IMG/VR virus record: IMGVR_UViG_3300023242_000003
Coordinates: 1-64,000 of that record
Length of the DNA: 64,000 nt
Direction: 5' to 3' (one strand)
DNA from: a virus
Part shown: positions 3,893 to 51,984 of the stretch, one piece after another
How the letters are laid out: each line of letters opens with the position of its first letter
Position numbering within the stretch: the stretch's first letter is position 1
Made by a program: the position numbers and the translations under genes
The notes under the pieces: model-generated
What the model was told of the DNA's origin: nothing
The model's database searches: none
The model's input: the letters and a program-made list of their open reading frames with translations, nothing else

Positions 3893-6847
3893 TTGATAAA
3901 TTTAGACGATATACGAGGGCGTTCAGCCATTTCATTGCTTGAGACATATGAAGGGATAAATCCATACATCAAAAAACTAAAAATAGCTTTTTTGAAAAAT
4001 AATAAATTAGCTTTAACTGAAAACCAATCAAAGTACATTACTGAAAACCATGAAAGAGAACCTCTTTTCATTAATAGGATTGTTGGTATAACTCCTTATC
4101 TAGGTGAAGAACTAAAAAAAATGGATGAGTTATCGTTCACACCAGAAAAAGTTTTAATTGAATTTATTCTTGCTGATACAGATAAAACATTTCATATATA
4201 CGGCAAACTAAAACAAAACCAAAAAGAGTCTAAAATGTATTGGTTACCTAAAACACAGCTAACTGATGACCCATATTTTGAACCTAGTAATATAGAAGTA
4301 GATTTTAACCTATATAACGAAGTTTTATCAGAATATGGAAAGAAACTATATCAACACCAAGAAGAAGGTGTTAAATTCCTTCTTTCCAGAAACGGTTGTA
4401 TTTTAGCTGATGATATGGGGTTGGGGAAAGCTTGGTTATCGAGTACTTACATATACACCCCTAAAAATAAGGTTAAAATAGGTACACTTAAAGTAGGTGA
4501 CAAGGTAATTGGTTCTGATGGAAACCCATGTAATGTTACTGGTGTTTTCCCACAAGGGGTTAAAGATTTATATCGTATTACGTTTAATGATGGTTATAGT
4601 GGTTTAGTTTGTAAAGAACATTTATGGACTGTATCGTCAAATAATTCTGGTAATAATTCAAAAAATAGAGAAAATAGGTACATTACACTAAGTACCGAAC
4701 AAATGCTCAATAAAGAATTGGTTATTGAACAAAAAGGGACGGGTTGGAATGAAAAAAGACCATATAAATTAAAGACATATTATAAACATAGTAATGGTCA
4801 AAATAAGTGGCAAATTCCAATTGTCAAACCAATAGAATTTTATAATAATATTGAATTACCGATTGAACCTTATTTATTAGGACTTGGTTTAGGGGATGGT
4901 TATTTTGATAATAGAAATAATATTAAAATAGAATTACACCAAAATGATTTTGAAGAAATATTTAAAAAACTAAATATTAATGAATACGCTGCAACAAATA
5001 ATAATCTAACAGCCTACATTAAATTAAATCATGAATTAATAGATTTAGGTTTAAACAATAAAAAATCAGATACTAAATTTATCCCTAACATCTATAAATA
5101 TTCATCAATTAATGATAGAATAGCTATACTACAAGGTCTCATGGATACTGATGGTCATTGTATTAAATCTAATGCTGGTGTATTTACTGGTACCGAGTAC
5201 TGTAGTGTATCGGAACAACTAACTGATGATGTAGCTGAAATTGTTCATAGTTTAGGTGGTATTGTTAGAAAATCATCTAAGGTTGGTTCTTACAAAAAAG
5301 AGGATGGAACTAGGGTAATATGTAAACGTGCTTTTAGGTTAAATATCAAGATGCCAGAAGGTATTAACCCATTTAGACTTAAAAGAAAAGCTAATTCTTA
5401 TAACTCGCCAAAAAAATATCCAGTTGGTCGATATATTTCTAATATTGAATTAGAAACAAAAGGTGATGCGGTATGTATTTCTGTAGATACTCCAGATAAG
5501 TTATATGTTGTCGAACATGGAATTGTTACACACAATACAACACAATCGATTGTAGCGGCACTAGAAAGTGGTGCTAAAAAAATATTAGTCGTTTGCCCGT
5601 CATCAACAAAAATTAACTGGGAGCGTGAAATTAATGTTTTTTGTGATGACACAACAATTATCGATGGTAAAAAATGGAGTGATGCTAAATTCACTATAAT
5701 TAATTTTGATATTCTTAAAAATTTCCATACTTTATCTTCTGGTAAAAAACCAAAAGAAGGTGAACCAGAAGAAATTTTAAATAGAGAATTGGTAAACGCT
5801 AATTATGATTTATGTATCATTGATGAGGCTCATTATTTAAAAAATAATGAAAGTATTAGAGGTAAAATAATGGTGGAACTTTGTGCTAAGGAAAAAATAG
5901 AGAAGGTTTGGTTGTTAACTGGTACACCCGTCGCAAATAGACCTATGGATTTCTTTAATCTTTTAAAGATTATTAAATCTCCTATCGCAGATAATTGGAA
6001 ACATTATGCTGTAAGGTATTGTGATGCTAGAAAGTTCTTTAGAACGCTTAAGAATGGTCAAAAAAAACAAATATGGCTTACTGATGGTGCTAGTAATTTA
6101 GAAGAACTAGCTAATAAAACCAAAAATACTATTATTAGACGTTTAAAAACTGAAGTGTTAGATATGCCAGATAAAGTAGTGACACCTATGCACCATATGT
6201 TAGATAAAAAAGGTGTTAAACAATATGAATTACTTTGGGAAGAATACTTACAAAAAAGGAAATTAGAGGGTAAGAAAACAGATAATCTACAAAAAGATTT
6301 GGTTGAACTTATTCTACTTAGACAATTTATTGCGCAAGAAGCTATTCCTTATACTATTGAAATGATAGAAAACGCTATTGAAATGGGTCGTAAAGTGATA
6401 GTATTTACTAGTTTTACTGATGAATTAGAAATGATATCTAATCACTTTGGTAAATTGGCGGTTAAACACAACGGCCTAATGACAACATTACAAAAACAAA
6501 AATCAGTTGATTCGTTTCAAAACAACGACAAGGTAAAAGTTTTTGTTGGTAATATAAAATCTGCTGGTGTTGGTATCACACTTACTGAAGCAACTGTGGT
6601 TATTTTTAACTCATTTGATTGGGTTACTGGTAATAACGAACAAGCTGAAGATAGAGCGTATAGAATTGGACAAAAGAATGATGTTAATGTTTATTATCAA
6701 TTATTTGACGACACTATATCAATAAGGATGTGGGAAACTTTAAAACAAAAACAAGAAATAATTAACATAATATTAGGTGTTGAAAATATAACCAAAGAAA
6801 ATGAAACAGATTTATTAACCCAAAAAATATTGAATGGTGATTTATAA
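3893..6847 (+). CDS. SNF2-family helicase interrupted by an intein in the P-loop
   Basis: This 984-residue precursor is a superfamily 2 ATPase. It has motif I DDMGLGK-T (split by the intein), DEAHYLKN (motif II), LTGTPVANRP (motif III), GNIKSAGVGITLTEA (motif V) and EQAEDRAYRIGQ (motif VI), the SWI/SNF2 pattern. After removal of the 369-residue intein the mature protein is about 615 residues. Such helicases remodel protein-DNA complexes or act in replication and recombination (T4 UvsW is a functional relative). The start is TTG at 3893; a stop lies five codons upstream and no ATG fits. The last 71 codons, from 6629, are a diverged copy of a relic at 9340-9552, so the 3' end appears to have been replaced when a nuclease cassette inserted. 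Glutaredoxin was probably the original next gene. Confidence 0.85.
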   Translation: MINLDDIRGRSAISLLETYEGINPYIKKLKIAFLKNNKLALTENQSKYITENHEREPLFINRIVGITPYLGEELKKMDELSFTPEKVLIEFILADTDKTFHIYGKLKQNQKESKMYWLPKTQLTDDPYFEPSNIEVDFNLYNEVLSEYGKKLYQHQEEGVKFLLSRNGCILADDMGLGKAWLSSTYIYTPKNKVKIGTLKVGDKVIGSDGNPCNVTGVFPQGVKDLYRITFNDGYSGLVCKEHLWTVSSNNSGNNSKNRENRYITLSTEQMLNKELVIEQKGTGWNEKRPYKLKTYYKHSNGQNKWQIPIVKPIEFYNNIELPIEPYLLGLGLGDGYFDNRNNIKIELHQNDFEEIFKKLNINEYAATNNNLTAYIKLNHELIDLGLNNKKSDTKFIPNIYKYSSINDRIAILQGLMDTDGHCIKSNAGVFTGTEYCSVSEQLTDDVAEIVHSLGGIVRKSSKVGSYKKEDGTRVICKRAFRLNIKMPEGINPFRLKRKANSYNSPKKYPVGRYISNIELETKGDAVCISVDTPDKLYVVEHGIVTHNTTQSIVAALESGAKKILVVCPSSTKINWEREINVFCDDTTIIDGKKWSDAKFTIINFDILKNFHTLSSGKKPKEGEPEEILNRELVNANYDLCIIDEAHYLKNNESIRGKIMVELCAKEKIEKVWLLTGTPVANRPMDFFNLLKIIKSPIADNWKHYAVRYCDARKFFRTLKNGQKKQIWLTDGASNLEELANKTKNTIIRRLKTEVLDMPDKVVTPMHHMLDKKGVKQYELLWEEYLQKRKLEGKKTDNLQKDLVELILLRQFIAQEAIPYTIEMIENAIEMGRKVIVFTSFTDELEMISNHFGKLAVKHNGLMTTLQKQKSVDSFQNNDKVKVFVGNIKSAGVGITLTEATVVIFNSFDWVTGNNEQAEDRAYRIGQKNDVNVYYQLFDDTISIRMWETLKQKQEIINIILGVENITKENETDLLTQKILNGDL
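4430..5536 (+). mobile_element. Intein (Ala-1 type, LAGLIDADG) in helicase P-loop
   Basis: This is a 369-codon in-frame insertion between GLGK and T of Walker A. It starts AWLSSTYIYTP and ends with VTHN before Thr+1. The canonical N-terminal Cys or Ser is replaced by Ala. Hint-type blocks are present (TLKVGDKVIGSDG, then KEHLWT and VEHGIVTHN), plus two LAGLIDADG motifs: LLGLGLGDG (about residue 143 of the intein) and LQGLMDTDG (about residue 235), both retaining their acidic residues. It is homologous to the PhoH intein at 34035-35129, which sits at the same GK^T site. Confidence 0.9.
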
Positions 6848-6936: not shown

Positions 6937-8103
6937 TTAGTTAGAGAAACTGTAAATTCCTCTATTATAAATATTAATACTTGCATTATAATCAGCATCT
7001 ATTTCATATTTACAACTTGTACATTTGAAGTTCTCGCCTTGGCGAGACTTCTTATCTACATGACCGCAACTAGAACATGTTTGTGAGGTATATGCTGGTG
7101 AAACCTTCACCAACATAATACCGTTATCCTCACATATCCTATTTATTTTATCAATGGTCTTGACATAAGACCATCTTTGTATTTTATTTGTAAAATATTT
7201 CTTACCAGTTTTAACTGATACTAAATCTTCTATTATTATATTATTAACATCTTCGATGTTAATTAAATTACATAACCTATTTATTTCATTATCTCTATGA
7301 TTTAAACTTCGTTTAAATCCATTACTACCTTGTTTACATCTACTTATTTTAGAATATATATCACTTAAATCACCATTAATAACTTGATTATCAGATGTAA
7401 CAATTAATTTTTTATACCCCATATCAATTCCAATGGCTTTGCCATTGGTTTTAATATCTATCTCTTTTTCCCAAATAAGGCTAATATAATAATTATTTTT
7501 TACCTTCTTAATTTGTATATTATTTCTTAATTTAAACGTATTATGTTTAAATGATAATGAATGTTTATGGTGATTAAATGGTATATTTATTTGTAGGGCA
7601 CGAGTGCCCTTTTCATTAAAATAAGGTAATTTAAGATTAATAAAGTTATCAAAATGGGAACCATTTTGTATATTAAAAAATTCATTTGTTAGATTAATAC
7701 TAACATTATTTAGATTAGGTTTAGTGAAATATTTAGTTTTTAATATATTATTTAATGATAGGTCAGAGAATTTAGTTTTACAGAATGAAGAATCAGGATG
7801 ATTCTTCATCATATATGTGTATGTTTTTTTATATGATGAATATCTTTTCTTTTTACTTTTATCTAATTGACTTCTTATAATTTCTGATGCTTGTTTATAT
7901 ATTTCTCTTTTATATTTAGAATGTTTTATTACTTCTGTAGGAAGTAATTTAGATGATAAATTAGGTTTAAGGGGTAATACACCCTCTATTATATAGTTTA
8001 TATATATTTCTAAATCATGTTTATAATCAATAAATACTTGGTCAAGGGAAGCAAGCTTCCCTTGATTAGCATTTGATATAATATGTTTAGATGTTCTAAT
8101 CAT
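6937..8103 (-). CDS. tnpB: TnpB-like RuvC nuclease (IS605/IS607-type accessory protein)
   Basis: This 388-residue protein has the full TnpB C-terminal layout. RuvC-I is AIGIDMGYKK (Asp227) and RuvC-II is NIIIEDL (Glu292). A CxxC...CxxC zinc ribbon (Cys343, 346, 361, 364) follows in SPAYTSQTCSSCG, and RuvC-III is DADYNASINI (Asp371). TnpB proteins are RNA-guided DNA nucleases whose guide RNA arises from the 3' end of the gene and flanking DNA. Here that flank (6936 downward) runs into the antisense of the helicase 3' end. There is no TnpA transposase and no recognisable element ends. The start codon overlaps the stop of a 49-residue RHH gene by one base. The gene is probably used as a homing nuclease by the surrounding cassette; this is inference. 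Confidence 0.85.
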   Translation of the reverse strand: MIRTSKHIISNANQGKLASLDQVFIDYKHDLEIYINYIIEGVLPLKPNLSSKLLPTEVIKHSKYKREIYKQASEIIRSQLDKSKKKRYSSYKKTYTYMMKNHPDSSFCKTKFSDLSLNNILKTKYFTKPNLNNVSINLTNEFFNIQNGSHFDNFINLKLPYFNEKGTRALQINIPFNHHKHSLSFKHNTFKLRNNIQIKKVKNNYYISLIWEKEIDIKTNGKAIGIDMGYKKLIVTSDNQVINGDLSDIYSKISRCKQGSNGFKRSLNHRDNEINRLCNLINIEDVNNIIIEDLVSVKTGKKYFTNKIQRWSYVKTIDKINRICEDNGIMLVKVSPAYTSQTCSSCGHVDKKSRQGENFKCTSCKYEIDADYNASINIYNRGIYSFSN

Positions 8104-8252
8104 TATTTATTTTCTAATTCTTTTAGAATCAGTTTAGTAATTAATTTAGACATACCAATATTGTTTTCCAAACAATATTGTTGCAATTCAGTTTTAGTAG
8201 AATCTGTGATTCTTATAAAAACTCTATTTGTTTTATTTATTTTTGTTCGCAC
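8103..8252 (-). CDS. 49-residue ribbon-helix-helix protein paired with TnpB
   Basis: A GTG at 8250-8252 opens the frame MRTKINKTNRVFIRITDSTK and continues TELQQYCLENNIGMSKLITK to a stop whose last base is the A of the TnpB ATG. The short beta-strand (VFIRI), helix, turn (NIGMS) and second helix fit the Arc/CopG/MetJ ribbon-helix-helix fold of DNA-binding dimers. It probably autoregulates the pair or binds near the target. Another RHH protein of exactly 49 residues precedes the nuclease at 9885-10658, and a longer one precedes the HNH gene. A promoter-like motif ends directly at the start codon, so translation may be leaderless or nearly so. Confidence 0.65.
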   Translation of the reverse strand: MRTKINKTNRVFIRITDSTKTELQQYCLENNIGMSKLITKLILKELENK

Positions 8253-8332: not shown

Positions 8333-8827
8333 TTATATATTTTTATATGTTTTATTAACTACGTTAATAACACCGTTAATAATCCTAGTTGTACCCCACA
8401 TTGGTCTAAGGTTAGATAATGCATTTACAATACTAGGGTGTTCAGTCGTTTCAAAACTACCGACTGGTTTTATGTGGTCAACGTGCCATTCACCATGGTT
8501 TCTCCATGTCATACCCTCAGTAAATAATGCTGTAATATGTTCTTTAAACTCCAAAGCGGAATAACCTAATAAATCTATAGTGTGACCTTCTTTTTTGGTG
8601 TTTAATCTCCATAAAGACATTTTAAGAACACTTCTCCATAAACCAACGTGTTTATTTTTTAACCTATATTCTTGTCTTTTATTTTGGTTTATTTTATTAT
8701 ATTCTTTTTTGTAAATATTTTTACATTCTTTACATTGACAATGATAACCATCTTTACCTAAATTATTAACGTGAAATTCAGCGATTGATTTTTCAAGATT
8801 ACATTTAGTACAAATTTTAGTCTTCAT
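8333..8827 (-). CDS. HNH homing endonuclease
   Basis: This 164-residue protein begins with a treble-clef type zinc finger (CTKCNLEKSIAEFHV, then CQCKECKNIYKKEY) of the kind that precedes many phage HNH nucleases. The HNH core follows as GEWHVDHIKPVGSF, then NALSNLRPMWGTTR, with the expected His-Asp-His and a downstream Asn-Leu-Arg-Pro. HNH proteins make single- or double-strand breaks and often act as free-standing homing endonucleases in phages. The start overlaps the last 11 bases of the RHH gene upstream, so the two are translationally coupled. It lies inside cassette 1 on the strand opposite to the interrupted helicase. Its target is presumably the uninterrupted helicase 3' end, though TnpB could be the cutter instead. 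Confidence 0.8.
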   Translation of the reverse strand: MKTKICTKCNLEKSIAEFHVNNLGKDGYHCQCKECKNIYKKEYNKINQNKRQEYRLKNKHVGLWRSVLKMSLWRLNTKKEGHTIDLLGYSALEFKEHITALFTEGMTWRNHGEWHVDHIKPVGSFETTEHPSIVNALSNLRPMWGTTRIINGVINVVNKTYKNI

Positions 8828-9272
8828 TTACAATTACTGTAAAATCAATATTATATGGTGTTCTATCTTCTAAATAAAATAAAACAGAGCCATAAACCAT
8901 TTTATTATCTTTATTCGTTTTTATTTCTGACACTATAGTTTCAAAACTTAAATTTTCTTTTAATGTTTTTTCTAAAACTGTTTTAAGTGTGTGATTAAAT
9001 TCAAACAGTTCATTTGTTAAAACTTTATTTAAAACCATTTTAGTTAACAATATCTTAATTGATTTTTCTTGTGATAAAAAAATACCATCTGTGATAAAAT
9101 TAATATCATCATTTATAAATTTAATTATTTTATCACTCATTGATAAAGATTCAATTTTACATTTATTTTTAAACTTATTTTTGAGTTCAGAATTTATCCT
9201 AATTTTTATTTCAGTTTCTTTCATTTTATTAAATTTTATCATATTTATTATTTGTGGTAACATTGTACCCAT
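8817..9272 (-). CDS. Ribbon-helix-helix protein with C-terminal extension, paired with HNH nuclease
   Basis: A 151-residue frame from 9272. The segment KETEIKIRINSELKNKFKNK then CKIESLSMSDKIIKFIN has the strand-helix-turn-helix pattern of an RHH domain, with TEIKIRI as the strand and a 'SLSMSDKI' turn. Met17 (at 9224) lies immediately before this domain and is an alternative start, since residues 1-16 are not part of the fold. About 90 C-terminal residues are of unknown fold and may mediate dimer contacts or effector binding. The position directly upstream of and overlapping the HNH gene repeats the arrangement seen with TnpB and with the nuclease at 9885-10658. Confidence 0.55.
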   Translation of the reverse strand: MGTMLPQIINMIKFNKMKETEIKIRINSELKNKFKNKCKIESLSMSDKIIKFINDDINFITDGIFLSQEKSIKILLTKMVLNKVLTNELFEFNHTLKTVLEKTLKENLSFETIVSEIKTNKDNKMVYGSVLFYLEDRTPYNIDFTVIVNED

Positions 9273-9284: not shown

Positions 9285-9339
9285 ACTAATATTTTAAAAA
9301 AGATATAAATATTTACTTTTTATTTAAAATATTTATAAT

Positions 9340-9552
9340 GGGAATAATGAACAAGCAGAAGATAGAGCATTCCGTATTGGTCAAAAAAATGATGTCAATG
9401 TTTACTATCAATTATTTGACGATACTATTTCGAGTAGAATGTGGTCTATGTTAAATAGTAAAAAAGACATCATCAATATAATTATGGGTGATAAAAAATT
9501 AACAGAAGATGAAATAACTGCCTTATTGGTAGATGACTTAATAACAATGTAA
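9340..9552 (+). pseudogene. Displaced 3' end of the SNF2 helicase gene
   Basis: The plus frame reads GNNEQAEDRAFRIGQKNDVN, continues VYYQLFDDTISSRMW and ends LLVDDLITM at TAA 9550-9552. This is the SNF2 motif VI and C-terminus: 30 of the first 31 residues match the active helicase C-terminus (6629-6847), and about 45 of 70 match overall. It has no start codon of its own. It is followed one base later by the glutaredoxin start, so it marks the original helicase-glutaredoxin junction before cassette 1 inserted. No frameshift or stop has yet appeared, which suggests a recent insertion or low mutation rate. Confidence 0.85.
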
Positions 9553-9553
9553 T

Positions 9554-9808
9554 ATGATAACAATTTATAGTTTCCCAGAATGCCCTTATTGCAAGGAATT
9601 AAAAAAGATTTATGATTCACAAGGCATTAAATATCGTGACGTAAACATAAACTTAGAAGAAAATATTAAAGAATGGGATGAAATTTCTGAAGCATCAAAA
9701 GCTGAAGAAGTCCCAGTGATAAAAATAGATAAACAATTATTGGTACCTAATGTTTCCTTCCAATCAATTAGTGAAGCTGTTGAGATAACTAAGAAGTTTT
9801 TAAGTTAA
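9554..9808 (+). CDS. Glutaredoxin (NrdC-like)
   Basis: This 84-residue thioredoxin-fold protein has the redox-active CPYC motif in YSFPECPYCKELKKIY (residues 4-19). It also has the cis-Pro segment EVPVIKID around residues 53-60, the usual glutaredoxin layout and size. T4 NrdC plays the same role, reducing ribonucleotide reductase or other disulfides during phage DNA synthesis. It starts one base after the stop of the displaced helicase tail. Before the cassettes inserted it was probably the middle gene of a helicase-glutaredoxin-neck protein group. The two cassettes lie on either side of it. Confidence 0.9.
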   Translation: MITIYSFPECPYCKELKKIYDSQGIKYRDVNINLEENIKEWDEISEASKAEEVPVIKIDKQLLVPNVSFQSISEAVEITKKFLS

Positions 9809-9822
9809 ATTAAAACTTATTG

Positions 9823-9838
9823 ATATTTATAATAAAAC
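9823..9838 (+). promoter_or_regulatory. Original phage promoter of the neck gene, now orphaned
   Basis: ATATTTATAATAAAAC lies 10 nt before the relic start codon at 9848. It equals the motif at 19986-20001. The active neck gene has its own variant at 10886-10900. Confidence 0.5.
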
Positions 9839-9847
9839 AAATTTATT

Positions 9848-9892
9848 ATGTCAATAACTATAGACGAAAAAGAAAAACTATTCCTTAGATAA
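9848..9892 (+). pseudogene. Orphaned 5' end of the gp13-like neck gene
   Basis: ATG at 9848 opens MSITIDEKEKLF, which aligns with MAISNDERDKLF at the start of the active neck gene (10908), 7 of 12 residues identical. After Phe the frame leaves the neck-gene sequence (LR then stop at 9890) and runs into the 3' end of the minus-strand nuclease gene. It keeps the promoter motif and spacing of a normal gene start, so it is best read as the former start of the neck gene, cut off when cassette 2 inserted. Confidence 0.75.
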
Positions 9893-10658
9893 CATGATTA
9901 AGATATTTAAGGATGTTTTTTCTATATGGAATAATTATTAATTTAATATTATTATCGTTACAATAATTTTCTTTTATTTTATCTCTACTTTTTAATTTAT
10001 TAAAAACCGTTTCACCACCAAACCATTTTATTGGTTTATAATGTTGTTCCCCATGAAATTCGATACATGTGTTATAATCTGGTAAATAAAAATCGAATGG
10101 TAATTTATTAATATTTTTACAATCATTAAATTTATATTGTGGTGAAAAGTTAATTTTTTTAGATTCTAATATATTTCTAATTTCTTTTTCACCTTTTGAT
10201 TCACGACAATTCGGACAACCTTTACCTCTTAAATGTTCATACGGTAATTGTTCGAAATTTCCATGTATAGGACAAATTATATTAATTTTAGTCTTTGAAT
10301 TAATATAATTAACTAATTTATAAATATAAAAATTATAATGTTTTATTATAAATTTATTTATTAATTCATCGTTAGTGATTAATTTAATTTTTAATTTATT
10401 AGTTCTTGCTTTAATACTTTTTATACTTCTATTTAATACTTTAACACAACCATGTATGCCAATTTTACTATAATTCTCAATTAAGAAAATATCATCATTC
10501 TTAACCCATTTTTCTTCCAGAATCAACCCTAATTTAAATGCTTTCATATAAATAGATTTAGTTGTTTTACCTAATTTTTTTACACAATAATCACTACAAT
10601 TAACAGAATAATTATTTTTTAAAAAATCTATTTCATTAGTACTCCACCTATTTGCCAT
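9885..10658 (-). CDS. Vsr/PD-(D/E)XK-type homing endonuclease with DUF723-like zinc modules
   Basis: This 257-residue protein has N-terminal helix-turn-helix-like repeats (residues 1-70, for example KKLGKTTKSIYMKAFKLGL). A DUF723-like 'CPIHGNFEQLPYEHLRGKGC' then 'PNCRES' segment follows (about 130-155), and a C-terminal restriction-like core has LPFDFYLPDYNTCIEFHGEQ then HY. The D...E-x-H pattern with a downstream KLIIIPY strand fits phage homing endonucleases of the Vsr/EDxHD group. It starts immediately after the stop of a 49-residue RHH gene (TAA-ATG) and ends inside the relic of the neck gene start. It is the presumed cutter of uninterrupted neck genes. Confidence 0.8.
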   Translation of the reverse strand: MANRWSTNEIDFLKNNYSVNCSDYCVKKLGKTTKSIYMKAFKLGLILEEKWVKNDDIFLIENYSKIGIHGCVKVLNRSIKSIKARTNKLKIKLITNDELINKFIIKHYNFYIYKLVNYINSKTKINIICPIHGNFEQLPYEHLRGKGCPNCRESKGEKEIRNILESKKINFSPQYKFNDCKNINKLPFDFYLPDYNTCIEFHGEQHYKPIKWFGGETVFNKLKSRDKIKENYCNDNNIKLIIIPYRKNILKYLNHVI

Positions 10659-10808
10659 TTATAATAATTTTTTTTTTAAATCCATTTCTATTAATAATTT
10701 TATTCGTTTTGATAGTGAATAACCGTTTTTATTACAGTATTCATTGTATTCTTCTTTTATTTTTTTATTTATCCTAATATTTAAATAATCGTTGTTTTGT
10801 GTTGACAT
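10659..10808 (-). CDS. 49-residue ribbon-helix-helix protein paired with the Vsr-like nuclease
   Basis: The minus-strand frame MSTQNNDYLNIRINKKIKEE continues YNEYCNKNGYSLSKRIKLLI and ends KKKLL. The YLNIRI strand, first helix, GYSLS turn and second helix match the Arc/CopG ribbon-helix-helix fold. It has the same length (49 residues) and layout as the RHH protein before TnpB. The stop codon abuts the ATG of the nuclease gene, so the pair is translationally coupled. It probably regulates nuclease expression or forms part of DNA targeting; the sequence does not decide between these. Confidence 0.65.
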   Translation of the reverse strand: MSTQNNDYLNIRINKKIKEEYNEYCNKNGYSLSKRIKLLIEMDLKKKLL

Positions 10809-10817
10809 GTCATTACA

Positions 10818-10835
10818 TTTTTAATATAAATATAT
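10818..10835 (-). promoter_or_regulatory. Promoter-like motif of the RHH/Vsr-like nuclease unit
   Basis: The minus strand reads ATATATTTATATTAAAAA, about 10 nt before the RHH start at 10808. It is divergent from the neck-gene promoter at 10886-10900. Confidence 0.4.
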
Positions 10836-10885
10836 GAGTTATGTTAAAAAAAATAAATATTATTGTTTTATTTTATCTGTCAATG

Positions 10886-10900
10886 ATATTTATAGTAAAA
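10886..10900 (+). promoter_or_regulatory. Phage promoter-like motif of the active neck gene
   Basis: ATATTTATAGTAAAA lies 7 nt before ATG 10908. It is followed by AAGGAAC, one of the few purine-rich stretches that could serve as a ribosome-binding site here. Confidence 0.5.
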
Positions 10901-10907
10901 AGGAACT

Positions 10908-12062
10908 ATGGCTATAAGTAATGATGAACGTGATAAGTTATTTCGTCAATTCAGACATTCATTGGGCGCACCAGTGCGTCAAATTGAATTGGAAGATGAG
11001 CAACTTTGTACCCTATTAGAAATTTCAATAGAGGACTATGCTCAATATGTCCAAGAATGGTTAGTTGAACATCAATGGCAATCTTTATTAGGTCAAAATT
11101 TAGACACAACAGATATGGCATTTGCTTTGAGTGTTAGAAACTTTAACTTTATGACCCAATATACTTATGCTTATTCTAAACAAGTTGGTTTACAGTCTAA
11201 TGGTCCGTGGGAGTTAAAAAAAGACTATGTCGAAGTTGAAGCTGGAAGACAAGTTTATGTTATCCCAGCTGGTCGTGAAATTAACGAAGTGCTTTGGATT
11301 ACTCCACCTCCCACGAATAGAGCTTTATTAGCTAATTTTGGTGGTATTGACGCTGGTTTTGGTGGTGGTTTTGGACAAATGGGTGGTGGTGTAGGTACAA
11401 TGGGTGCTGGTGGTGGAAATATGGGTTATTATATTGCACCAGCTTTTGATATATTGCTAACTGCTGCCGATATGAATTTAAAAAATCGTATTGTTAGAAG
11501 TGAATTAGCGCATAAAATAACAGCTGGACCAAACGGAACCAAACTACTTCATTTAATGAGTACTCCTGGTTCAAAATTATCTTTTGGTGGTTCAGCTGGC
11601 GGTTTAGGTACTGGGGTTGGTGGTGCAATGAACATGGCTGGTTGTCAAGTTTGGTATCACTATTACGACACTACACCAGAGAATTTAGGTAAATGTCTTG
11701 ACGACAATCCAGATATTATTAAAATGCCAAATCAAGTACCATTAGCTAGGCTAGATTACGCTGAATTTAACGAACCAACAAAAACACTTATTCGTCAGCT
11801 ATTTATTGCGGAAGCTAAAAGAGCTTTAGGCAGAACTAGAGGTAAGTTTGGTGGGATTGTTGGGCCGCCAGAAGCGGAAAGAACTATGGATTATGAAACA
11901 CTTATCTCAGAAGGTAATGACGAGAAAAAAGCTGTGTTAGAAAGATTGGAAGCTAGACTACTTAGACTTTCATCCACATCGCAATTAGAAAGAGGTGCTA
12001 AAGAAGCAACAGACTTAAATACTTCGATGAAATACAGACCATTAGGGTTTTGGGTTTATTAA
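10908..12062 (+). CDS. gp13: gp13-like neck (head completion) protein
   Basis: This 384-residue protein has an N-terminus (residues 14-45: FRHSLGAPVRQIELEDEQLC then TLLEISIEDYAQY) that matches the 'LGAP...VEL...Q....I..AL..Y' pattern opening T4 gp13. Gp13 forms part of the neck that seals the packaged head and receives the tail. A Gly-rich stretch (residues 144-180, GGIDAGFGGGFGQMGGG and onward) is inserted between otherwise conserved strands, and a second one lies near residue 225. The last part (RPLGFWVY) is hydrophobic. The first 12 codons are a replacement copy brought by cassette 2, and the old start survives at 9848. It converges on the DNA polymerase gene across a terminator. Confidence 0.7.
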   Translation: MAISNDERDKLFRQFRHSLGAPVRQIELEDEQLCTLLEISIEDYAQYVQEWLVEHQWQSLLGQNLDTTDMAFALSVRNFNFMTQYTYAYSKQVGLQSNGPWELKKDYVEVEAGRQVYVIPAGREINEVLWITPPPTNRALLANFGGIDAGFGGGFGQMGGGVGTMGAGGGNMGYYIAPAFDILLTAADMNLKNRIVRSELAHKITAGPNGTKLLHLMSTPGSKLSFGGSAGGLGTGVGGAMNMAGCQVWYHYYDTTPENLGKCLDDNPDIIKMPNQVPLARLDYAEFNEPTKTLIRQLFIAEAKRALGRTRGKFGGIVGPPEAERTMDYETLISEGNDEKKAVLERLEARLLRLSSTSQLERGAKEATDLNTSMKYRPLGFWVY

Positions 12063-25616: not shown

Positions 25617-26390
25617 ATGATAAATAAATTTGATTTTAACGATATATTAATTAAACCAAGTAAAACGTCTGATATAAAAAGTAGACAAGATATAAACCCA
25701 AGACGAACATTTTTTTTACCGCTTATAACTGCACCTATGGATACAGTTATAAGTGAGAAAAACAAGTTGATTTACTCTAATCTAAACATAATTACATGTT
25801 TACCTAGAGGTGAAAAAAATAATAGTGATTTTGAATCTTATTCATTGCGAGAAATAGAAGAAGAATTAAACTCTAAACGTTTAAAATCAAATGGATTTTA
25901 TTTAATAGATATAGCTAATGGTCATATGTCAAGATTAATCACCGTCACTAAAAAAATTAAAAGAACTTTACCTAAAGTTACATTAATGGTTGGTAATGTT
26001 GCTAACCCAGAAACTTATGTTGAGCTATCTAACGCTGGTGCCGATTATATTAGGGTTGGTATTGGTAACGGTGGTGGTTGTTTTGTTGGTGAAACAAAAG
26101 TAATAACAAAAGATGGTGAAAAAGACATTAAAGATATTATAATTGATGATTTAGTTTTAACACACACTGGTGAATTTAAACTAGTATCTAGTACTTTAGC
26201 TTATCCAACTAGTGAATCATTAATAAAAATAAATGAAACAATTTCAACTAAAAAACATGAATATTACGTTGTAAATAAAAAATTTTCTAATTTAGTTAAT
26301 GATAATAATATTCATGAATATGCCGAATGGTTAAGTGCCGATTTACTAACTAAAGAATATTTTTTATTGGAATACGTAACTAATGTCTGA
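25617..26390 (+). CDS. IMP dehydrogenase/GMP reductase, N-terminal half fused to split-intein N part
   Basis: Residues 1-154 are the first half of a GuaB/GuaC TIM barrel (FDFNDILIKPSKTSDIKSR, PLITAPMDTVISEKN, VGNVANPETYVELSNAGADY, RVGIGNGGG). At Cys155 the frame becomes a split intein: CFVGETKVITKDGEKDIKDI, then KHEYYVVNKK and NDNNIHEYAEWLSAD. This closely follows the natural IMPDH-1 split intein (pattern CFVPGT...KHEFYV...NEDNIH). The stop at 26388-26390 ends the N precursor. The C half is encoded after a free-standing endonuclease gene. Joined exteins total about 331 residues without CBS domains, closer to GMP reductase than to full IMPDH. Confidence 0.88.
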   Translation: MINKFDFNDILIKPSKTSDIKSRQDINPRRTFFLPLITAPMDTVISEKNKLIYSNLNIITCLPRGEKNNSDFESYSLREIEEELNSKRLKSNGFYLIDIANGHMSRLITVTKKIKRTLPKVTLMVGNVANPETYVELSNAGADYIRVGIGNGGGCFVGETKVITKDGEKDIKDIIIDDLVLTHTGEFKLVSSTLAYPTSESLIKINETISTKKHEYYVVNKKFSNLVNDNNIHEYAEWLSADLLTKEYFLLEYVTNV

Positions 26391-26408
26391 CCTTTTAATT
26401 AGTTCGAC

Positions 26409-26424
26409 ATATTTATAATTAAAG
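26409..26424 (+). promoter_or_regulatory. Phage promoter-like motif inside the fractured gene
   Basis: ATATTTATAATTAAAG lies 2 nt before the endonuclease ATG, between the stop of the N half and the endonuclease. It gives the endonuclease and the C half their own promoter. Confidence 0.45.
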
Positions 26425-26426
26425 AT

Positions 26427-27452
26427 ATGTTAAAAGAAAAATTTAATGAGGGTAATAAATGTTTAGAATGTGGTGTTGTATTTAAAAAAGACACTAATAA
26501 TAAAAATTATTTATCTTTCATAAGTCATTTAAAAAAAGACCATAATATTAGTAATAGTGAATATTATTTAAAACATTATTTGAATAATAAAATAGTTTTA
26601 TGTGGTTGTGGTTGTGGTAAAAAAACTAATTATTTTAAAGGTAAATTTTTAAAATATTATTCTAATCATAAAAATTTTATTACCCCATCTGAAGATACTT
26701 TATTTAAAGTAAATAAATCAAAAAAAGAGTATAATAATATTGACAATTTAATAAAAAAAACTGGTATTAGTTTTGAGACAATAAATAGAACATTCGATGA
26801 GTTTATAAGGTTAGAAAAACCAATTAGTGTTTTGAGTAAAGATTTATTTATAGATTTTAGAACATTAAAAAGTTATTGGTTTAAATTAGGTCTTATTAAA
26901 AATAAAGAAGAATTTAAGCGAATCTCTTTAAAATCTAAAGTTAAGTGGATGGTAAACCCACTTAAACCTAACGATACAATTATCAATATTCTAAATGAAA
27001 ATATTTTAATTTTAAAAAAAGAATTAGAGAGTAAAGAGAAATTAACGTTTAATGATATTATAACAATAATAGGTGTTGATGTTAATAAAAATTTTTTAAG
27101 TTTTTATTTAAAAGAAAAATTATCATATAATGAGATTAAAAAAATAAAATTTATTAAACAAAGTCAGATTGAAATTGAGTTTCAAAACGTTTTAAAATTT
27201 TATTTCGGCAAATCAATTACTGGTTCTTTTGAATTAGATGGTAGAGTTTTCGACTATAAGTTAGGTAATAAAATATTAATAGAGTTAGATGGTGAATATT
27301 GGCACTCTAAAGAAGAAGCTAAAAAAAATGATTTATTAAAAAATAAGATAGCTGAAAAAAATAAATTAATATTAATAAGAGTTAATGATAAAGAGGTTAA
27401 ATCTTTAGGGTTTATTAATAAATTAAAAAAAATATATGATGAATTTAAATAA
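26427..27452 (+). CDS. Free-standing Vsr-like homing endonuclease inside the split-intein locus
   Basis: A 341-residue protein. The N-terminus has zinc-binding modules (CLECGVVFKKDTNNK, HLKKDHN, LCGCGCGKKTNYF). The middle has helix-turn-helix type segments for target recognition (NLIKKTGISFETINRTFDEF, EFKRISLKSKVKW). The C-terminus is a Vsr/MutH-like nuclease core: FELDGRVFDYKLGNKILIEL then DGEYWHSKEEAKKND, with D and E-L-D-G-x-Y-W-H and a final 'KLILIRVNDKEV' strand. The same nuclease family was reported in fractured phage genes with split inteins. It presumably cuts unoccupied IMPDH/GMPR genes so that the split-intein locus spreads. Confidence 0.85.
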   Translation: MLKEKFNEGNKCLECGVVFKKDTNNKNYLSFISHLKKDHNISNSEYYLKHYLNNKIVLCGCGCGKKTNYFKGKFLKYYSNHKNFITPSEDTLFKVNKSKKEYNNIDNLIKKTGISFETINRTFDEFIRLEKPISVLSKDLFIDFRTLKSYWFKLGLIKNKEEFKRISLKSKVKWMVNPLKPNDTIINILNENILILKKELESKEKLTFNDIITIIGVDVNKNFLSFYLKEKLSYNEIKKIKFIKQSQIEIEFQNVLKFYFGKSITGSFELDGRVFDYKLGNKILIELDGEYWHSKEEAKKNDLLKNKIAEKNKLILIRVNDKEVKSLGFINKLKKIYDEFK

Positions 27453-28107
27453 ATATAGGTTAATAGAAATTTCTACTATTGAGGAAATTAATAATGATAA
27501 TTATGAAATGGTTTATGATTTAACTATTGAGGATAATGAGTCATACACAGCTAATAAAAATATAGTTCATAACTGTTCAACAACTGTACATACAGGTGTT
27601 GGTTACCCTATGGGGTCCTTGGTTCAAGAATGTTACGAACTTTCATGTACTTTAGATAAACCAGCCAAAATTGTTGCTGATGGTGGTATGCAGAATTATA
27701 GTGATATAATTAAAGCATTGGCTTTAGGTGCTGATTTTGTTATGATTGGTAGTTTATTTAATAAAGCTATAGAATCATGTGGTGATAACTATTTGTGGAA
27801 ACATATCAAGGTGTCTCAAAATATAGCTGAAAAAGCTTACAAATTAAAAATACCTGTTTATAAAAAATTTAGAGGTATGAGTACTAAAGAAGTTCAAAAG
27901 AAATGGGGTAAAGTTGTTCCAACTACGTCTGAAGGCGTTATTCGATATAGAAAAGTTGAATATACGTTACAACAATGGACAAATAATTTTGAAGATTATT
28001 TGCGTTCAGCCATGAGTTATTCTAACGCTAAAAATTTGATAGATTTTATTGGTAAAGCAGAAATAATAAAAATAACGGATAACGCTTATAACAGATTTAA
28101 AAAATGA
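27436..28107 (+). CDS. IMP dehydrogenase/GMP reductase, C-terminal half preceded by split-intein C part
   Basis: Residues 1-46 form the intein C part (EISTIEEINNDNYEMVYDLT ... NESYTANKNIVHN), ending in His-Asn. Cys47 is both the +1 splice residue and, by alignment with GPGSVCTTR of GuaC, the catalytic Cys. The extein continues CSTTVHTGVGYPMGSLVQEC, IVADGGMQNYSDIIKALALG and ADFVMIGSLF, giving the phosphate-binding loops of the barrel, and ends LIDFIGKAEI...NRFKK. TGVGYP favours GMP reductase over IMPDH. ATG 27436 or 27439 lies within the end of the endonuclease gene. The stop overlaps the next gene (ATGA). Confidence 0.87.
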   Translation: MMNLNKYRLIEISTIEEINNDNYEMVYDLTIEDNESYTANKNIVHNCSTTVHTGVGYPMGSLVQECYELSCTLDKPAKIVADGGMQNYSDIIKALALGADFVMIGSLFNKAIESCGDNYLWKHIKVSQNIAEKAYKLKIPVYKKFRGMSTKEVQKKWGKVVPTTSEGVIRYRKVEYTLQQWTNNFEDYLRSAMSYSNAKNLIDFIGKAEIIKITDNAYNRFKK

Positions 28108-33800: not shown

Positions 33801-35777
33801 ATGTCAAAAAAAGTTTCAACACCGTTAAAAACAACTGCTGCTAAACCAGCTAGAACCACTAGAACTAAAAAAACAGAAACTAACGAAATTGTTTCTTCGG
33901 CACACATAAAACAAGACTTACTTAGCCAGATAAAAATAGATTTAAAACATAAGAATGAGGTTCAGAAAAAACTTACCCAATCAATCAAAAATGGTGATGT
34001 AACTATTTGTACTGGCCCAGCTGGTACTGGTAAAGCCCAACCACTTGATTCATTAATTTTAACCCCAAAAGGGTATGTTAAAATGGGTGATATTAATGTA
34101 GGTGATGAGGTTATTGGGGTTAATGGTACCCCTATATTAGTAGATGGTGTTTACCCACAAGGTGAAAAAGAAATTTATTTAATTTCTTTTTCAGATGGAA
34201 CACAAACTGAGTGTTGTGGTGAACATTTATGGTTTACTCAAACCTATGAAGAGAGGAATAAACGTAAAAGAGTAACTGATGATAATGGGAAACGTATTTA
34301 TATCGGTAAAAATCCAAATAAAGGTTCAGTTAGAAATACGATTGATATTATGAATTCGTTAGTTGTTGGTAAAAAATCACAAAAAGTTAATCACTCAATT
34401 CCAATTGTTAAACAAATTGAATTTAAAACCAAAGAAGTTACTATTGACCCTTATTTATTAGGTTGTTTATTAGGTGATGGTGGTTTTACCACACCAGCAA
34501 TATCCTTAACAACAAATGATGTACAAATTGTTGAAACGATTTCTAATATTTTACCAAAAAATCATATTCTAAAAGAAAAATATGGTCAAAATTATATTAT
34601 AAAGTCGGTTGGGGTTAAAAAAAATGATATAACAGAGTATTTACGTGAAGTTAATTTATTTGGATTAACTTCTTCATACAAATTCATTCCAGAAGAATAT
34701 CTAATTAACGATACTAACACTAGATTAGAAATTTTAAGGGGGTTATTAGACACTGATGGTTCCGTGGATACAAAAACTGGTACACCGTTATTCTATTCTA
34801 CTTCTGAGAAGTTAATAGATGGAGTAACCTTTATAGTACAATCACTTGGTGGTATAGTTAAAAAAACACAAAAAATAGGTAAATATAGAAAACTAAATGG
34901 TGAGGTAAAAGAATGTAAGGTTATTTATTCGCTACATATTAACTTACCACTAGGGGTAATACCATTTAAATTAGATAGGAAAATAAATCTAATGAAACAA
35001 AGAGTTAAATATTTTCCTATTCGGTATATTAAAAATGTTGAACTAATAGGTAAGAAAAAGGCTCAATGTATTTCTGTAAATGACGAAAACCATTTATATT
35101 TAACAAATGATTGTATTGTAACGCACAACACCTTATTAAGTGTTGCTGAGGCGTTAATCTTATTAAAAACTCACCCAGAAATTTATTATGAAATCAAACT
35201 AGTTAAATCAATCATTCAACTTAAAGATGAGGATTTAGGTACTTTACCTGGTGATGAAAGAGATAAATTAAAATTTATTATGATGTCTTTCTTTGATGCT
35301 TTCTATAAACTAATAGGTGAAGAACTAACTAATAAATTGTTAGATGCTGGTTACATAAAAATGGAGGTTTTTGGTTCTATTCGTGGTAGGTCACTATCAA
35401 ACTGTATCGTGTTATTTGATGAATTTCAAAACGTTACCGATAACAACGGAAAAACACTTCTTACTCGTTTCTCTGAAAACACCAAAGTAATAGCTCTAGG
35501 TGATAGTAATCAAGTAGATTTAAAAAAACCAGAATCTAGTTGTTTAGGTGAGTTAGTCAGAATGGCTAAATTACACCCAGAAGAAGGTGTTAATGTGGTT
35601 GAATTTACTGAAAATGAAGTTGTTAGACATAGGTTAACAAAATATTTTATAAACATTTTTGAACATAAAGACTACAAAAAAATTACGGTACCAAAACCAT
35701 CATCAAGTAGAATAATTAAAAAATCTGGTTTTTTTAGTTTTTTAAACTTTTTAAAAAAAAAAATAGATAATTTATAA
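33801..35777 (+). CDS. phoH: PhoH-like ATPase interrupted by an intein in the P-loop
   Basis: A 658-residue precursor. Exteins: VTICTGPAGTGK (residues 67-78) joined to TLLSVAEALILL, then GSIRGRSLSNCIVLFDEFQN (Walker B), ENTKVIALGDSNQVDLKKPE and FTENEVVRH. These are the PhoH motifs, giving a mature protein of about 293 residues. PhoH proteins are RNA/DNA-stimulated ATPases, very common in phages of marine and freshwater bacteria; their exact phage role is unsettled. The N-terminal 40 residues (TTAAKPARTTRTKKTE) are a basic disordered tail. Splicing must occur before the P-loop can bind ATP, since the intein sits between Lys and Thr of GKT. Confidence 0.9.
   Translation: MSKKVSTPLKTTAAKPARTTRTKKTETNEIVSSAHIKQDLLSQIKIDLKHKNEVQKKLTQSIKNGDVTICTGPAGTGKAQPLDSLILTPKGYVKMGDINVGDEVIGVNGTPILVDGVYPQGEKEIYLISFSDGTQTECCGEHLWFTQTYEERNKRKRVTDDNGKRIYIGKNPNKGSVRNTIDIMNSLVVGKKSQKVNHSIPIVKQIEFKTKEVTIDPYLLGCLLGDGGFTTPAISLTTNDVQIVETISNILPKNHILKEKYGQNYIIKSVGVKKNDITEYLREVNLFGLTSSYKFIPEEYLINDTNTRLEILRGLLDTDGSVDTKTGTPLFYSTSEKLIDGVTFIVQSLGGIVKKTQKIGKYRKLNGEVKECKVIYSLHINLPLGVIPFKLDRKINLMKQRVKYFPIRYIKNVELIGKKKAQCISVNDENHLYLTNDCIVTHNTLLSVAEALILLKTHPEIYYEIKLVKSIIQLKDEDLGTLPGDERDKLKFIMMSFFDAFYKLIGEELTNKLLDAGYIKMEVFGSIRGRSLSNCIVLFDEFQNVTDNNGKTLLTRFSENTKVIALGDSNQVDLKKPESSCLGELVRMAKLHPEEGVNVVEFTENEVVRHRLTKYFINIFEHKDYKKITVPKPSSSRIIKKSGFFSFLNFLKKKIDNL
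34035..35129 (+). mobile_element. Intein (Ala-1 type, LAGLIDADG) in PhoH P-loop
   Basis: A 365-codon insertion starting AQPLDSLILTPKGYVKMGD and ending CIVTHN before Thr+1. Two LAGLIDADG motifs, LLGCLLGDG and LRGLLDTDG, keep their acidic residues. The segment GVYPQGEKEIYLISFSDG matches GVFPQGVKDLYRITFNDG of the helicase intein, so the two inteins are homologues at the same GK^T site. Confidence 0.9.
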
Positions 35778-50106: not shown

Positions 50107-51984
50107 TTATTCAGATAAAAATTTATCTAAATCGTTTAATAGGTTTTCTTTTATTAATGGTTTCTTGGTTTCTTTGTTCTCAACATAAGGTTTCATTTCT
50201 TCTCTACTTCTACCAATCCATGCGTCTGGGGTAGAAGGGGCTGTAACTACATCCCAACAAATAATTTCAAAATCTTCTTGAACTATTTGTTCACCATTTT
50301 CCCCTTCAACTAACGAACCAACACCTCTAGAGGAAACACCAATCTTAATTCTATTTCTTAATAAGTTAGCCACTTCATCTCCTTTTGTTGACACTATACC
50401 GTAGTTAATAAAACCAGGTGTCATCAAAATTTCCATTTTACCCATAAGTGTGTGACCTTCCCACCATGTCTCAACAATATTATGTGAAATTCTATCACCA
50501 GCAATAATAGATGAATTTCCATTCCAACAAGTTTTACCATTATCTCTAACATAGAACACGTGATTAGGTACATCAACACAATAAACATTATCGTTATACT
50601 CAACTAATTCCGTTTTTAACGTTCTTTTATCTAAATAAATACCTTTTGTTTTTGAAATATGTAATCTATTCATTGGGTTTGAATGACCTTTTTTAATTAC
50701 TCTATTTTCAAACATTCTATCATAATTTCGTTCCTCAATTCTTAAATTAGATGAGTACCCAATTTTTAATATAATTTCTTGTAAATCATTTATTAATTTT
50801 TTAGAAGTACTAAAAACTTCTCGATATTTACCATCTCTAACTCGTCCATCCCCCAAAACAAACCAATCTAAAAAATCAGATAATAAGTTATCACTCAATC
50901 CTTTTAATTCAGTTGGTATAAATTTATCTTGTGATTTACCAAATTGTTTTAAATAATTATGTAATCTAGCATCATTTATTTTAAAATCTACTTTACCATC
51001 TGAATAGATTATTTCTTTAAAACTTAACGGTAATAATTGTAATAATTCCCTTATCAGTATTTTACCATTTTCTTTTTTCTGTGTTATTTTACAAACATAA
51101 CCACTATCAGATGATTCAAAACCATATTCTGTTTCACCATTTTCAGTTATTCTAGATATTCTTTTTTTTGTTTTGTTAACCACAACACAACCATCGGCTA
51201 AATAAACACCCATAAATTTGACCCATAAATCCATTGGTATCTCAATATCACTCATCAATTCTAATTTTTTACTGTATGAGGTATTAAAAGCTATTTCATT
51301 TTCATCTAGACCTTTAATAGTAAAAAATTTTTTATCGTCACCAACCCACTTACCAAGTTTAGGTATATACATTTTATCAATACCTTTAATCTTGTGTTCG
51401 TGTATGTCTGTGGCGGTAATAAAACTCCCATTACCGTTTCTATCTATAACCCAAAATTTATGGTTAGGTGTGACCATTAAGTCAATTGACCTACCTTTTA
51501 TTGAAATCATATTACCGTTGTAGTGCTTAACTATTTTTTTTGTTATAGTTTTTAGCTCTATTTGGTTTGAAATTGGGTTTAAAGTATATACTTCTTCAGT
51601 TGAAGAAATATCTTTAATATATTTCCACCCATCTTTAGTTAAAATTTCAGCACTTTGTCGGTGACATTCTGGGTGGTCTAATTCACCAACTGCTCTTCTT
51701 TCTCTAATTGCTTCTTGATATAGTCTGTCTTGGCTTTTAAGTATCGCTTCTCGATAGATTCTACCGTTACGATTAAGAATACCAAATTTTTGTAAAACCA
51801 CATAAACGATAAGTGGTTCCATTATAGCTAGTTTGCCACCTGTATCTAATTTTTTTATCTCATTGATAAAAAGTTGGTTTCTCGGTTCTTCTGGGGAGAT
51901 ATATCCAGCATCGTGCTCGATTAGCCCACCCCAACCGCTCTCACCACGTTTAAGTATTCTAAAGTCTTTATAATTTATGTCCAT
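50107..51984 (-). CDS. gp21: Prohead protease (T4 gp21-like) interrupted by an intein at the catalytic His
   Basis: A 625-residue precursor. Exteins: FGILNRNGRIYREAILKSQD and RERRAVGELDHPE (residues 95-106), joined after splicing to SSIIAGDRISHNIVETWWEG, then KIGVSSRGVGSL and IICWDVVTAPSTPDAWIG. These are the hallmarks of gp21-type proteases (catalytic His in GELDHP, Ser in GVSSRG). The mature protein is about 241 residues. The enzyme matures the prohead by cutting capsid, core and internal proteins after (I/L)xE. The intein sits two residues after the catalytic His, so no activity is possible until splicing. It starts the leftward block protease-scaffold-capsid. Confidence 0.9.
   Translation of the reverse strand: MDINYKDFRILKRGESGWGGLIEHDAGYISPEEPRNQLFINEIKKLDTGGKLAIMEPLIVYVVLQKFGILNRNGRIYREAILKSQDRLYQEAIRERRAVGELDHPECHRQSAEILTKDGWKYIKDISSTEEVYTLNPISNQIELKTITKKIVKHYNGNMISIKGRSIDLMVTPNHKFWVIDRNGNGSFITATDIHEHKIKGIDKMYIPKLGKWVGDDKKFFTIKGLDENEIAFNTSYSKKLELMSDIEIPMDLWVKFMGVYLADGCVVVNKTKKRISRITENGETEYGFESSDSGYVCKITQKKENGKILIRELLQLLPLSFKEIIYSDGKVDFKINDARLHNYLKQFGKSQDKFIPTELKGLSDNLLSDFLDWFVLGDGRVRDGKYREVFSTSKKLINDLQEIILKIGYSSNLRIEERNYDRMFENRVIKKGHSNPMNRLHISKTKGIYLDKRTLKTELVEYNDNVYCVDVPNHVFYVRDNGKTCWNGNSSIIAGDRISHNIVETWWEGHTLMGKMEILMTPGFINYGIVSTKGDEVANLLRNRIKIGVSSRGVGSLVEGENGEQIVQEDFEIICWDVVTAPSTPDAWIGRSREEMKPYVENKETKKPLIKENLLNDLDKFLSE
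50515..51666 (-). mobile_element. Intein (LAGLIDADG) in prohead protease
   Basis: A 384-codon insertion from Cys107 (CHRQSAEILTKDGWKYI) to Asn490 (KTCWNGN) before Ser+1. The penultimate residue is Gly rather than the usual His. LAGLIDADG motifs FMGVYLADG and LDWFVLGDG both keep an Asp. Block B is 'VTPNHKFWVID'. The insertion is within GELDHPE^SSIIAG at the active site. Confidence 0.9.

What the first reader, a model, noticed from the sequence alone, without database searches (positions are those of the whole stretch)
9848..10943. Second rescue cassette, at the 5' end of the neck gene
Directly seen: MSITIDEKEKLF with a normal phage promoter motif at 9823-9883, then 1 kb of minus-strand nuclease and RHH genes, then promoter motif and MAISNDERDKLF continuing into the 384-residue neck protein. 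The old start is truncated after Phe12. The insertion has thus been repaired by supplying a new promoter and first codons, the mirror image of cassette 1 where a 3' end was supplied. Two independent insertions on either side of one 255-bp gene, both with duplicated gene ends, make chance unlikely.
Basis: partly seen in the sequence, partly recalled or inferred. Interest (0 to 1): 0.9.

Follow-up and report, generated by a model that had tools for sequence, protein, structure and literature searches.

The report
Selfish nuclease replaced a gene's beginning
In this phage a selfish DNA-cutting gene sits inside the start of an essential virus-particle gene, and the insertion carries a new promoter and first 12 codons so that the gene stays whole while its old start lies dead next to it; sister phages show that the same trick recurs at other genes, at either end.

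Summary
A sister phage, L002 (about 95-97% identical DNA around this locus), lacks the nuclease. There glutaredoxin, its 39-bp spacer and ATGTCAGTAACTATAGAAGAAAAAGAAAAATTATTT run straight into neck codon 13. The window's fragment 9848-9884 is therefore the native start, cut off at codon 12/13. The working start (10884-10943) is foreign: 24/36 bases match L002, against 32/36 for the relic, 281/294 for the flank upstream and 141/144 just downstream. The insert is an RHH gene plus a Vsr/EDxHD-like nuclease of a homing family. No group I intron or other Rfam RNA is present. Related cassettes with duplicated gene ends occur at the helicase 3' end, glutaredoxin 3' and 5' ends, neck 3' end, a 5'-3' exonuclease 5' end and Pth2-like 5' ends. 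Breakpoints are shared within three families, and the cassette-borne helicase ends of six phages form one clade (99/98). This is the phage counterpart of fungal mitochondrial mobile ORFs that carry foreign gene ends. I found no phage description in the papers I could search. Cutting and resistance are inferred, and the neck-5' cassette itself is known from this phage only.

The parts
9823..9847 (+). native neck promoter motif and leader, now driving only the truncated fragment
   Evidence: TATTTATA motif; 9554-9847 matches L002 281/294
9848..9884 (+). relic: native neck codons 1-12 plus first base of codon 13 (MSITIDEKEKLF), followed by cassette sequence and a stop
   Evidence: 32/36 bases match the intact start of L002
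9885..10658 (-). EDxHD/Vsr-like homing endonuclease, 257 aa; stop codon abuts the relic
   Evidence: phrog_9084 'homing endonuclease' E=2e-34, phrog_559 E=6e-51; conserved E157, D189, E200, Q205, H206; C-terminal domain modelled at pLDDT about 90, Vsr (1vsr) among the top fold matches, prob 0.90 but E 0.13
10659..10808 (-). RHH (Arc/RelB-like) 49-aa protein, in operon with the nuclease
   Evidence: phrog_582 Arc-like repressor E=4e-4; RHH directly upstream of the nuclease also in L112/L113, L133, L136
10826..10833 (-). TATTTATA promoter-like motif of the RHH-nuclease operon, on the minus strand
   Evidence: sequence read directly
10884..10943 (+). supplied (foreign) promoter motif and neck codons 1-12 (MAISNDERDKLF)
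   Evidence: 24/36 bases match L002 versus 141/144 just downstream; start not found in any other viral contig
10944..12062 (+). native body of the neck (head-tail adaptor) gene
   Evidence: phrog_211 head-tail adaptor E=7e-7; codons 13-60 98% identical to L002
9554..9808 (+). glutaredoxin gene between the two cassettes
   Evidence: PF00462 E=3e-12
6635..6847 (+). cassette 1: supplied helicase 3' end (last 70 codons)
   Evidence: clade of six supplied ends, 99/98
8333..8827 (-). cassette 1: HNH / endonuclease VII-like nuclease
   Evidence: phrog_1035 E=3e-21
8817..9272 (-). cassette 1: RHH partner of the HNH gene
   Evidence: phrog_228 Arc-like E=2e-4
9331..9552 (+). cassette 1: relic of the native helicase 3' end
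   Evidence: 65% identical to the supplied end; groups with natives

Best explanation
A free-standing homing endonuclease with an RHH partner invaded the neck gene by cutting it in the coding sequence at codons 12/13. The break was repaired by copying from a donor that carried the nuclease next to its own, diverged neck 5' end. The neck-body side of the break was used for homologous priming. Copying ran through the donor's codons 12 to 1, its promoter, the RHH gene and the nuclease, and was then joined to the other broken end. The neck gene was therefore never lost: it received a new promoter and start, and the old start was left as a relic ending at the cut. Shown here: the relic is native, the new start is foreign, break and join are at the same codon, the gene body next to the join is unconverted, and similar cassettes recur at other gene ends with shared breakpoints. 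Inferred: the cutting itself, the donor, the one-sided copying, and the idea that the diverged new end protects the nuclease-bearing allele from being cut again.
For: L002 joins the relic-type sequence directly to codon 13. New start 24/36, relic 32/36, body 141/144 to L002. Nuclease family and conserved residues, Vsr-like fold match (weak E). Same pattern in relatives: helicase 3' (window, L002 without nuclease, L004, L017, L056), glutaredoxin 3' (L008, L024, L056, L065), glutaredoxin 5' (L026/L027), neck 3' (L002, L047, L048, L092), exonuclease 5' (L082, L100), Pth2-like 5' (L097, L107), and others. Breakpoints agree within families in independent lineages. Supplied helicase ends are one clade 99/98, relics lie among natives. 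Nuclease clades match target sites: glx3 and exo5 each 100. Duplicated ends at nuclease edges 8/64 versus 0/108 control genes, Fisher p = 3e-4. No intron RNA.
Against: Only one phage has the neck-5' cassette (the second record is 100% identical), so co-travel of this particular end with this nuclease is not shown. The orientation is unlike the other cassettes: elsewhere the nuclease stop side adjoins the supplied end, here it adjoins the relic. No biochemical proof of cutting. The donor allele was not found.
Confidence: 0.8

Rival explanations
1. Pre-built mobile cassette: nuclease plus gene end are a stable unit that inserts as such, as in fungal mitochondrial mobile ORFs, rather than a product of one-sided repair from an ordinary neighbouring allele. 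(A variant of the best explanation, differing in history.)
For: Supplied helicase ends from six phages form one clade while relics follow the host phage. glx-3' supplied ends share a distinct tail. Nuclease ORFs overlap the supplied gene ends in several 3' cassettes.
Against: For the neck-5' case there is no second instance; the very short foreign tract (up to codon 12 or 13) fits both readings.
Confidence: 0.45
2. Spliced element: the stretch 9885-10943 is an intron, and the 9848 start is the true first exon.
For: The fragment is in frame with codon 13 and would rejoin exactly.
Against: No group I intron or any other Rfam family, even at E up to 1; a complete start with its own promoter motif is present; the same arrangement at gene 3' ends does not need splicing.
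Confidence: 0.04
3. Local duplication of the neck 5' end within the phage, unrelated to the nuclease.
For: Two copies of one gene end lie about 1 kb apart.
Against: The copies share only 23/36 bases while flanks are 96-98% identical to the sister; duplicated ends sit at nuclease edges in 8/64 loci versus 0/108 for control genes.
Confidence: 0.05
4. Assembly chimera joining two phage strains.
For: Metagenome-derived sequence.
Against: A second record is identical across both cassettes; the same architecture recurs in many contigs.
Confidence: 0.03

Closest known systems
Fungal mitochondrial mobile ORFs carrying foreign gene ends (Allomyces macrogynus atp6; Glomus atp6, atp9, cox2, nad3; PMC3630166)
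   Same: Endonuclease ORF inserted near a gene end; foreign end fused to the gene; native end left as a relic that matches uninterrupted relatives better than the foreign copy does.
   Different: Those described are LAGLIDADG or GIY-YIG and replace C-terminal ends in organelles. Here a phage, an EDxHD-like nuclease with RHH partner, and a 5' end together with its promoter.
[quoted passage not shown]
   Same: A gene fragment plus mobile element exchanges part of a host gene.
   Different: Discussed as predicted introns within mitochondrial genes; not phage; no promoter and start replacement described in the passages read.
T4 intronless homing by seg/mob free-standing endonucleases (PMC2988022)
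   Same: Free-standing phage endonuclease next to conserved genes; mobility by break and repair.
   Different: There the cut lies hundreds to thousands of bp from the nuclease gene, with flanking co-conversion; where genes are hit (mobE in nrdA, mobA in gene 60) they are split. Here the gene end is replaced and the relic ends at the presumed cut. The review holds no word beginning with 'duplicat'.
EDxHD/Vsr-like homing endonucleases (I-Bth0305I type, own knowledge; family listed in the abstract of PMC6083498)
   Same: Vsr-like nuclease domain and conserved residues.
   Different: No sequence match to any solved structure; the window protein has an N-terminal half that differs from the zinc-finger arrays of its relatives.

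Membership tests
EDxHD / Vsr-like homing endonuclease | conserved acidic and histidine catalytic residues in a Vsr-like domain | tested here: met
   E157, D189, E200, Q205, H206 kept in all 11 aligned relatives; phrog_9084 E=2e-34; Vsr among top fold matches, but E only 0.13
EDxHD / Vsr-like homing endonuclease | sequence-specific cleavage of the uninterrupted allele | not testable with these tools
   needs purified protein
mobile ORF with foreign gene end (Allomyces/Glomus type) | relic end is closer to uninterrupted relatives than the functional end | tested here: met
   32/36 versus 24/36 to L002; helicase class relic-native 74% versus supplied-native 59%
mobile ORF with foreign gene end (Allomyces/Glomus type) | foreign end in frame with the native gene body | tested here: met
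   384-aa ORF 10908-12062
mobile ORF with foreign gene end (Allomyces/Glomus type) | gene end travels with the nuclease between genomes | tested here: inconclusive
   met for the helicase cassette; neck-5' cassette seen in one phage only
group I intron / intein | self-splicing RNA or intein domains around the insertion | tested here: not met
   no Rfam match at E up to 1; the relic runs into a stop two codons later and the nuclease has no intein domain match
T4-type intronless homing with long co-conversion | cut site far from the nuclease gene, flanking sequence co-converted | tested here: not met
   foreign tract ends at codon 12/13; of the next 144 bases 141 are identical to the sister

The most novel reading that the evidence does not exclude
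A clade of phage EDxHD-like nucleases generally spreads by end replacement: each targets a conserved coding motif near one end of a gene and carries a diverged, cut-resistant copy of that end (with promoter if 5'), so essential genes can be invaded without an intron or intein; relics mark the cut sites, and permanent hybrid genes remain after the nuclease is lost.
Probability: 0.55. Interest if true: 0.75.

Novelty: new variant of a known kind. Interest (0 to 1): 0.62.

Why it matters
Free-standing homing nucleases must avoid destroying the conserved genes they target. Introns and inteins solve this by splicing; here the solution is a spare gene end. It explains hybrid gene ends in phages, predicts each nuclease's cut site from the relic boundary, and offers many nuclease/target pairs to test. 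It also shows how the promoter and start codons of an essential structural gene can be exchanged between phages in one step.

Tried and rejected
Intron reading: no Rfam hit. Donor of the new start by degenerate pattern: only the same phage. Second neck scan for another neck-5' cassette: none. PDB sequence search of the nuclease: none. Cultured phages with related nucleases (five records): no clear gene-end duplication; Lactococcus phage AM1 shows only a similar stretch of about 80 bp with stop codons on either side of one nuclease. Helicase insertions in L005, L024 and L029 looked like cassettes in the map but are inteins. L035/L036 and L058 have nucleases between glutaredoxin and neck without a visible relic. 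A rule 'nuclease stop adjoins the supplied end' fits the other cassettes I examined but not the window's cassette 2; I saw no remnant of a glutaredoxin 3' end in 10809-10883 that would explain this.

Full report
What is there. The window is the first 64 kb of a 99,591-base virus record. The break lies after the first base of codon 13; the nuclease stop codon begins at the next base. A promoter-like TATTTATA motif lies upstream of both neck starts and, on the minus strand, upstream of the RHH gene; in the window it is strongly enriched upstream of long ORFs (11 of 56 against 0.74 expected). A second record, L001, is identical over 15,152 bases.

The native state. 80 relatives of the neck gene were fetched and mapped. 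Most, all those without an insertion at this junction, have glutaredoxin, a spacer of usually about 37 bp and neck without interruption. The decisive one is L002: helicase and polymerase regions are about 95% identical to the window in DNA, and its uninterrupted neck start is of the relic type. Window 9331-9882 aligns to L002 at 96.6%. Identity to L002 is 281/294 for glutaredoxin plus spacer, 32/36 for the relic, 24/36 for the new start and 141/144 for codons 13-60. So the relic is native, the new start is foreign, and the foreign tract stops at the codon where the relic breaks. Further inside, the neck gene shows patchy identity to L002 (67-90% between about positions 181 and 840), which I did not explain.

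The nuclease. It matches PHROG families of homing endonucleases, keeps conserved acidic and histidine residues of its family, and its well-modelled C-terminal domain resembles Vsr and PvuRts1I, though with weak E-values. Relatives carry arrays of CapR/DUF723/DUF4379 zinc-finger units. RHH genes overlap or adjoin the nuclease start in three other lineages (L112/L113, L133, L136); the RHH protein may control nuclease expression (inference).

It recurs. The same neighbourhood in other phages holds other cassettes: helicase 3' end with HNH + RHH (window, L004, L017, L031, L056/57/61); glutaredoxin 3' end with an EDxHD-like nuclease (L008, L024, L056, L065); glutaredoxin 5' end, where the HNH ORF starts with the relic codons MVRIYSIPE (L026/L027); neck 3' end (L002, L047, L048, L092). 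A profile scan added a 5'-3' exonuclease 5' end (L082, L100), Pth2-like 5' ends (L097, L107), a 62-aa gene 5' end (L130), and 3' ends of an acetyltransferase-like gene (L153) and a structural-looking gene (L101). L094 has a 12-residue match at a 3' end, too short to lean on. In a uniform test, duplicated gene ends at the nuclease edges were found in 8 of 64 nuclease loci and 0 of 108 control genes (two of the eight look like the same phage, and 7/63 gives p = 7e-4). Short relics escape this test. The control set was drawn from the same loci, and six control genes gave hits away from their edges.

Breakpoints and history. In three families the relic begins at the same codon in independent lineages: helicase (GN|NEQ), neck 3' (Q|LERG), glutaredoxin 3' (L|TKKF). 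The exonuclease relics end at the same motif in L082 and L100. The supplied helicase ends of six phages are one clade with support 99/98, while relics nest among native ends; mean identities are supplied-supplied 75%, relic-native 74%, supplied-relic in one phage 59%. Nuclease clades follow their target site. Cassettes erode: L002 kept the helicase end and relic but has no nuclease there; L031 kept the nuclease but has no visible relic.

How it works. The simplest account is a cut at codon 12/13, repair primed from the neck body against a donor with a diverged start, copying through the new start, promoter, RHH and nuclease, and joining to the other broken end. This gives an intact gene, a relic ending at the cut and no conversion of the adjoining body. 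The copying direction, the donor and resistance of the new allele are inferred. Whether cassette 2 is a standing mobile unit or a single capture cannot be told from one phage; its nuclease orientation is opposite to that of the other cassettes.

What is known. Fungal mitochondria show the same principle (PMC3630166; PMC7315562). The T4 review (PMC2988022) describes distant cut sites, co-conversion and split genes. The survey of phage nucleases (PMC10448857) mentions no gene-end duplication in the passages searched. Subscription journals are mostly missing from the library, so absence there is weak evidence. I therefore call it a new variant of a known kind.

Noticed in passing
window 6937-8252: A TnpB with RuvC-like motifs and its own 49-aa RHH gene sits inside cassette 1, between the supplied helicase end and the HNH gene; it is absent from the same cassette in L004, L017 and L056.
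   Followed up: partly
window 25617-28107: An IMP dehydrogenase-like gene appears split: an N part ending in intein-like sequence, a separate nuclease-like ORF (26427-27452), and a C part starting with intein-like sequence. Looks like a fractured gene with a split intein.
   Followed up: no
window 3893-6847, 33801-35777, 50107-51984, 53982-57113, 57162-61622: Intein-like insertions in helicase, PhoH-like, prohead protease-like, portal-like and terminase-like genes (two in the last).
   Followed up: no
record position 77525-77623 (outside the window), L171 / L233: A 33-residue C-terminal piece of the same nuclease family is fused in frame to another ORF next to an acetyltransferase-like gene; the homologous gene in L153 carries a complete 3'-end cassette. 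Probably a dead cassette.
   Followed up: partly
L026 6093-6704, L027: An HNH nuclease ORF starts with the relic codons of glutaredoxin (MVRIYSIPE), so the old start may now drive the nuclease.
   Followed up: partly
L041 and L043, 7001-7468: An extra ORF resembling the N-terminal part of neck lies between glutaredoxin and neck; possibly a paralogue rather than a relic.
   Followed up: no
window 10908-12062 against L002: The middle of the neck gene (about positions 181-840) is only 67-90% identical to L002 although both ends of the native part are 93-98%; may be another exchange tract.
   Followed up: no
L237 (Lactococcus phage AM1) 2323-2400 and 3929-4006: A similar stretch of about 80 bp lies on both sides of an EDxHD-type nuclease plus a small ORF.
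   Followed up: no
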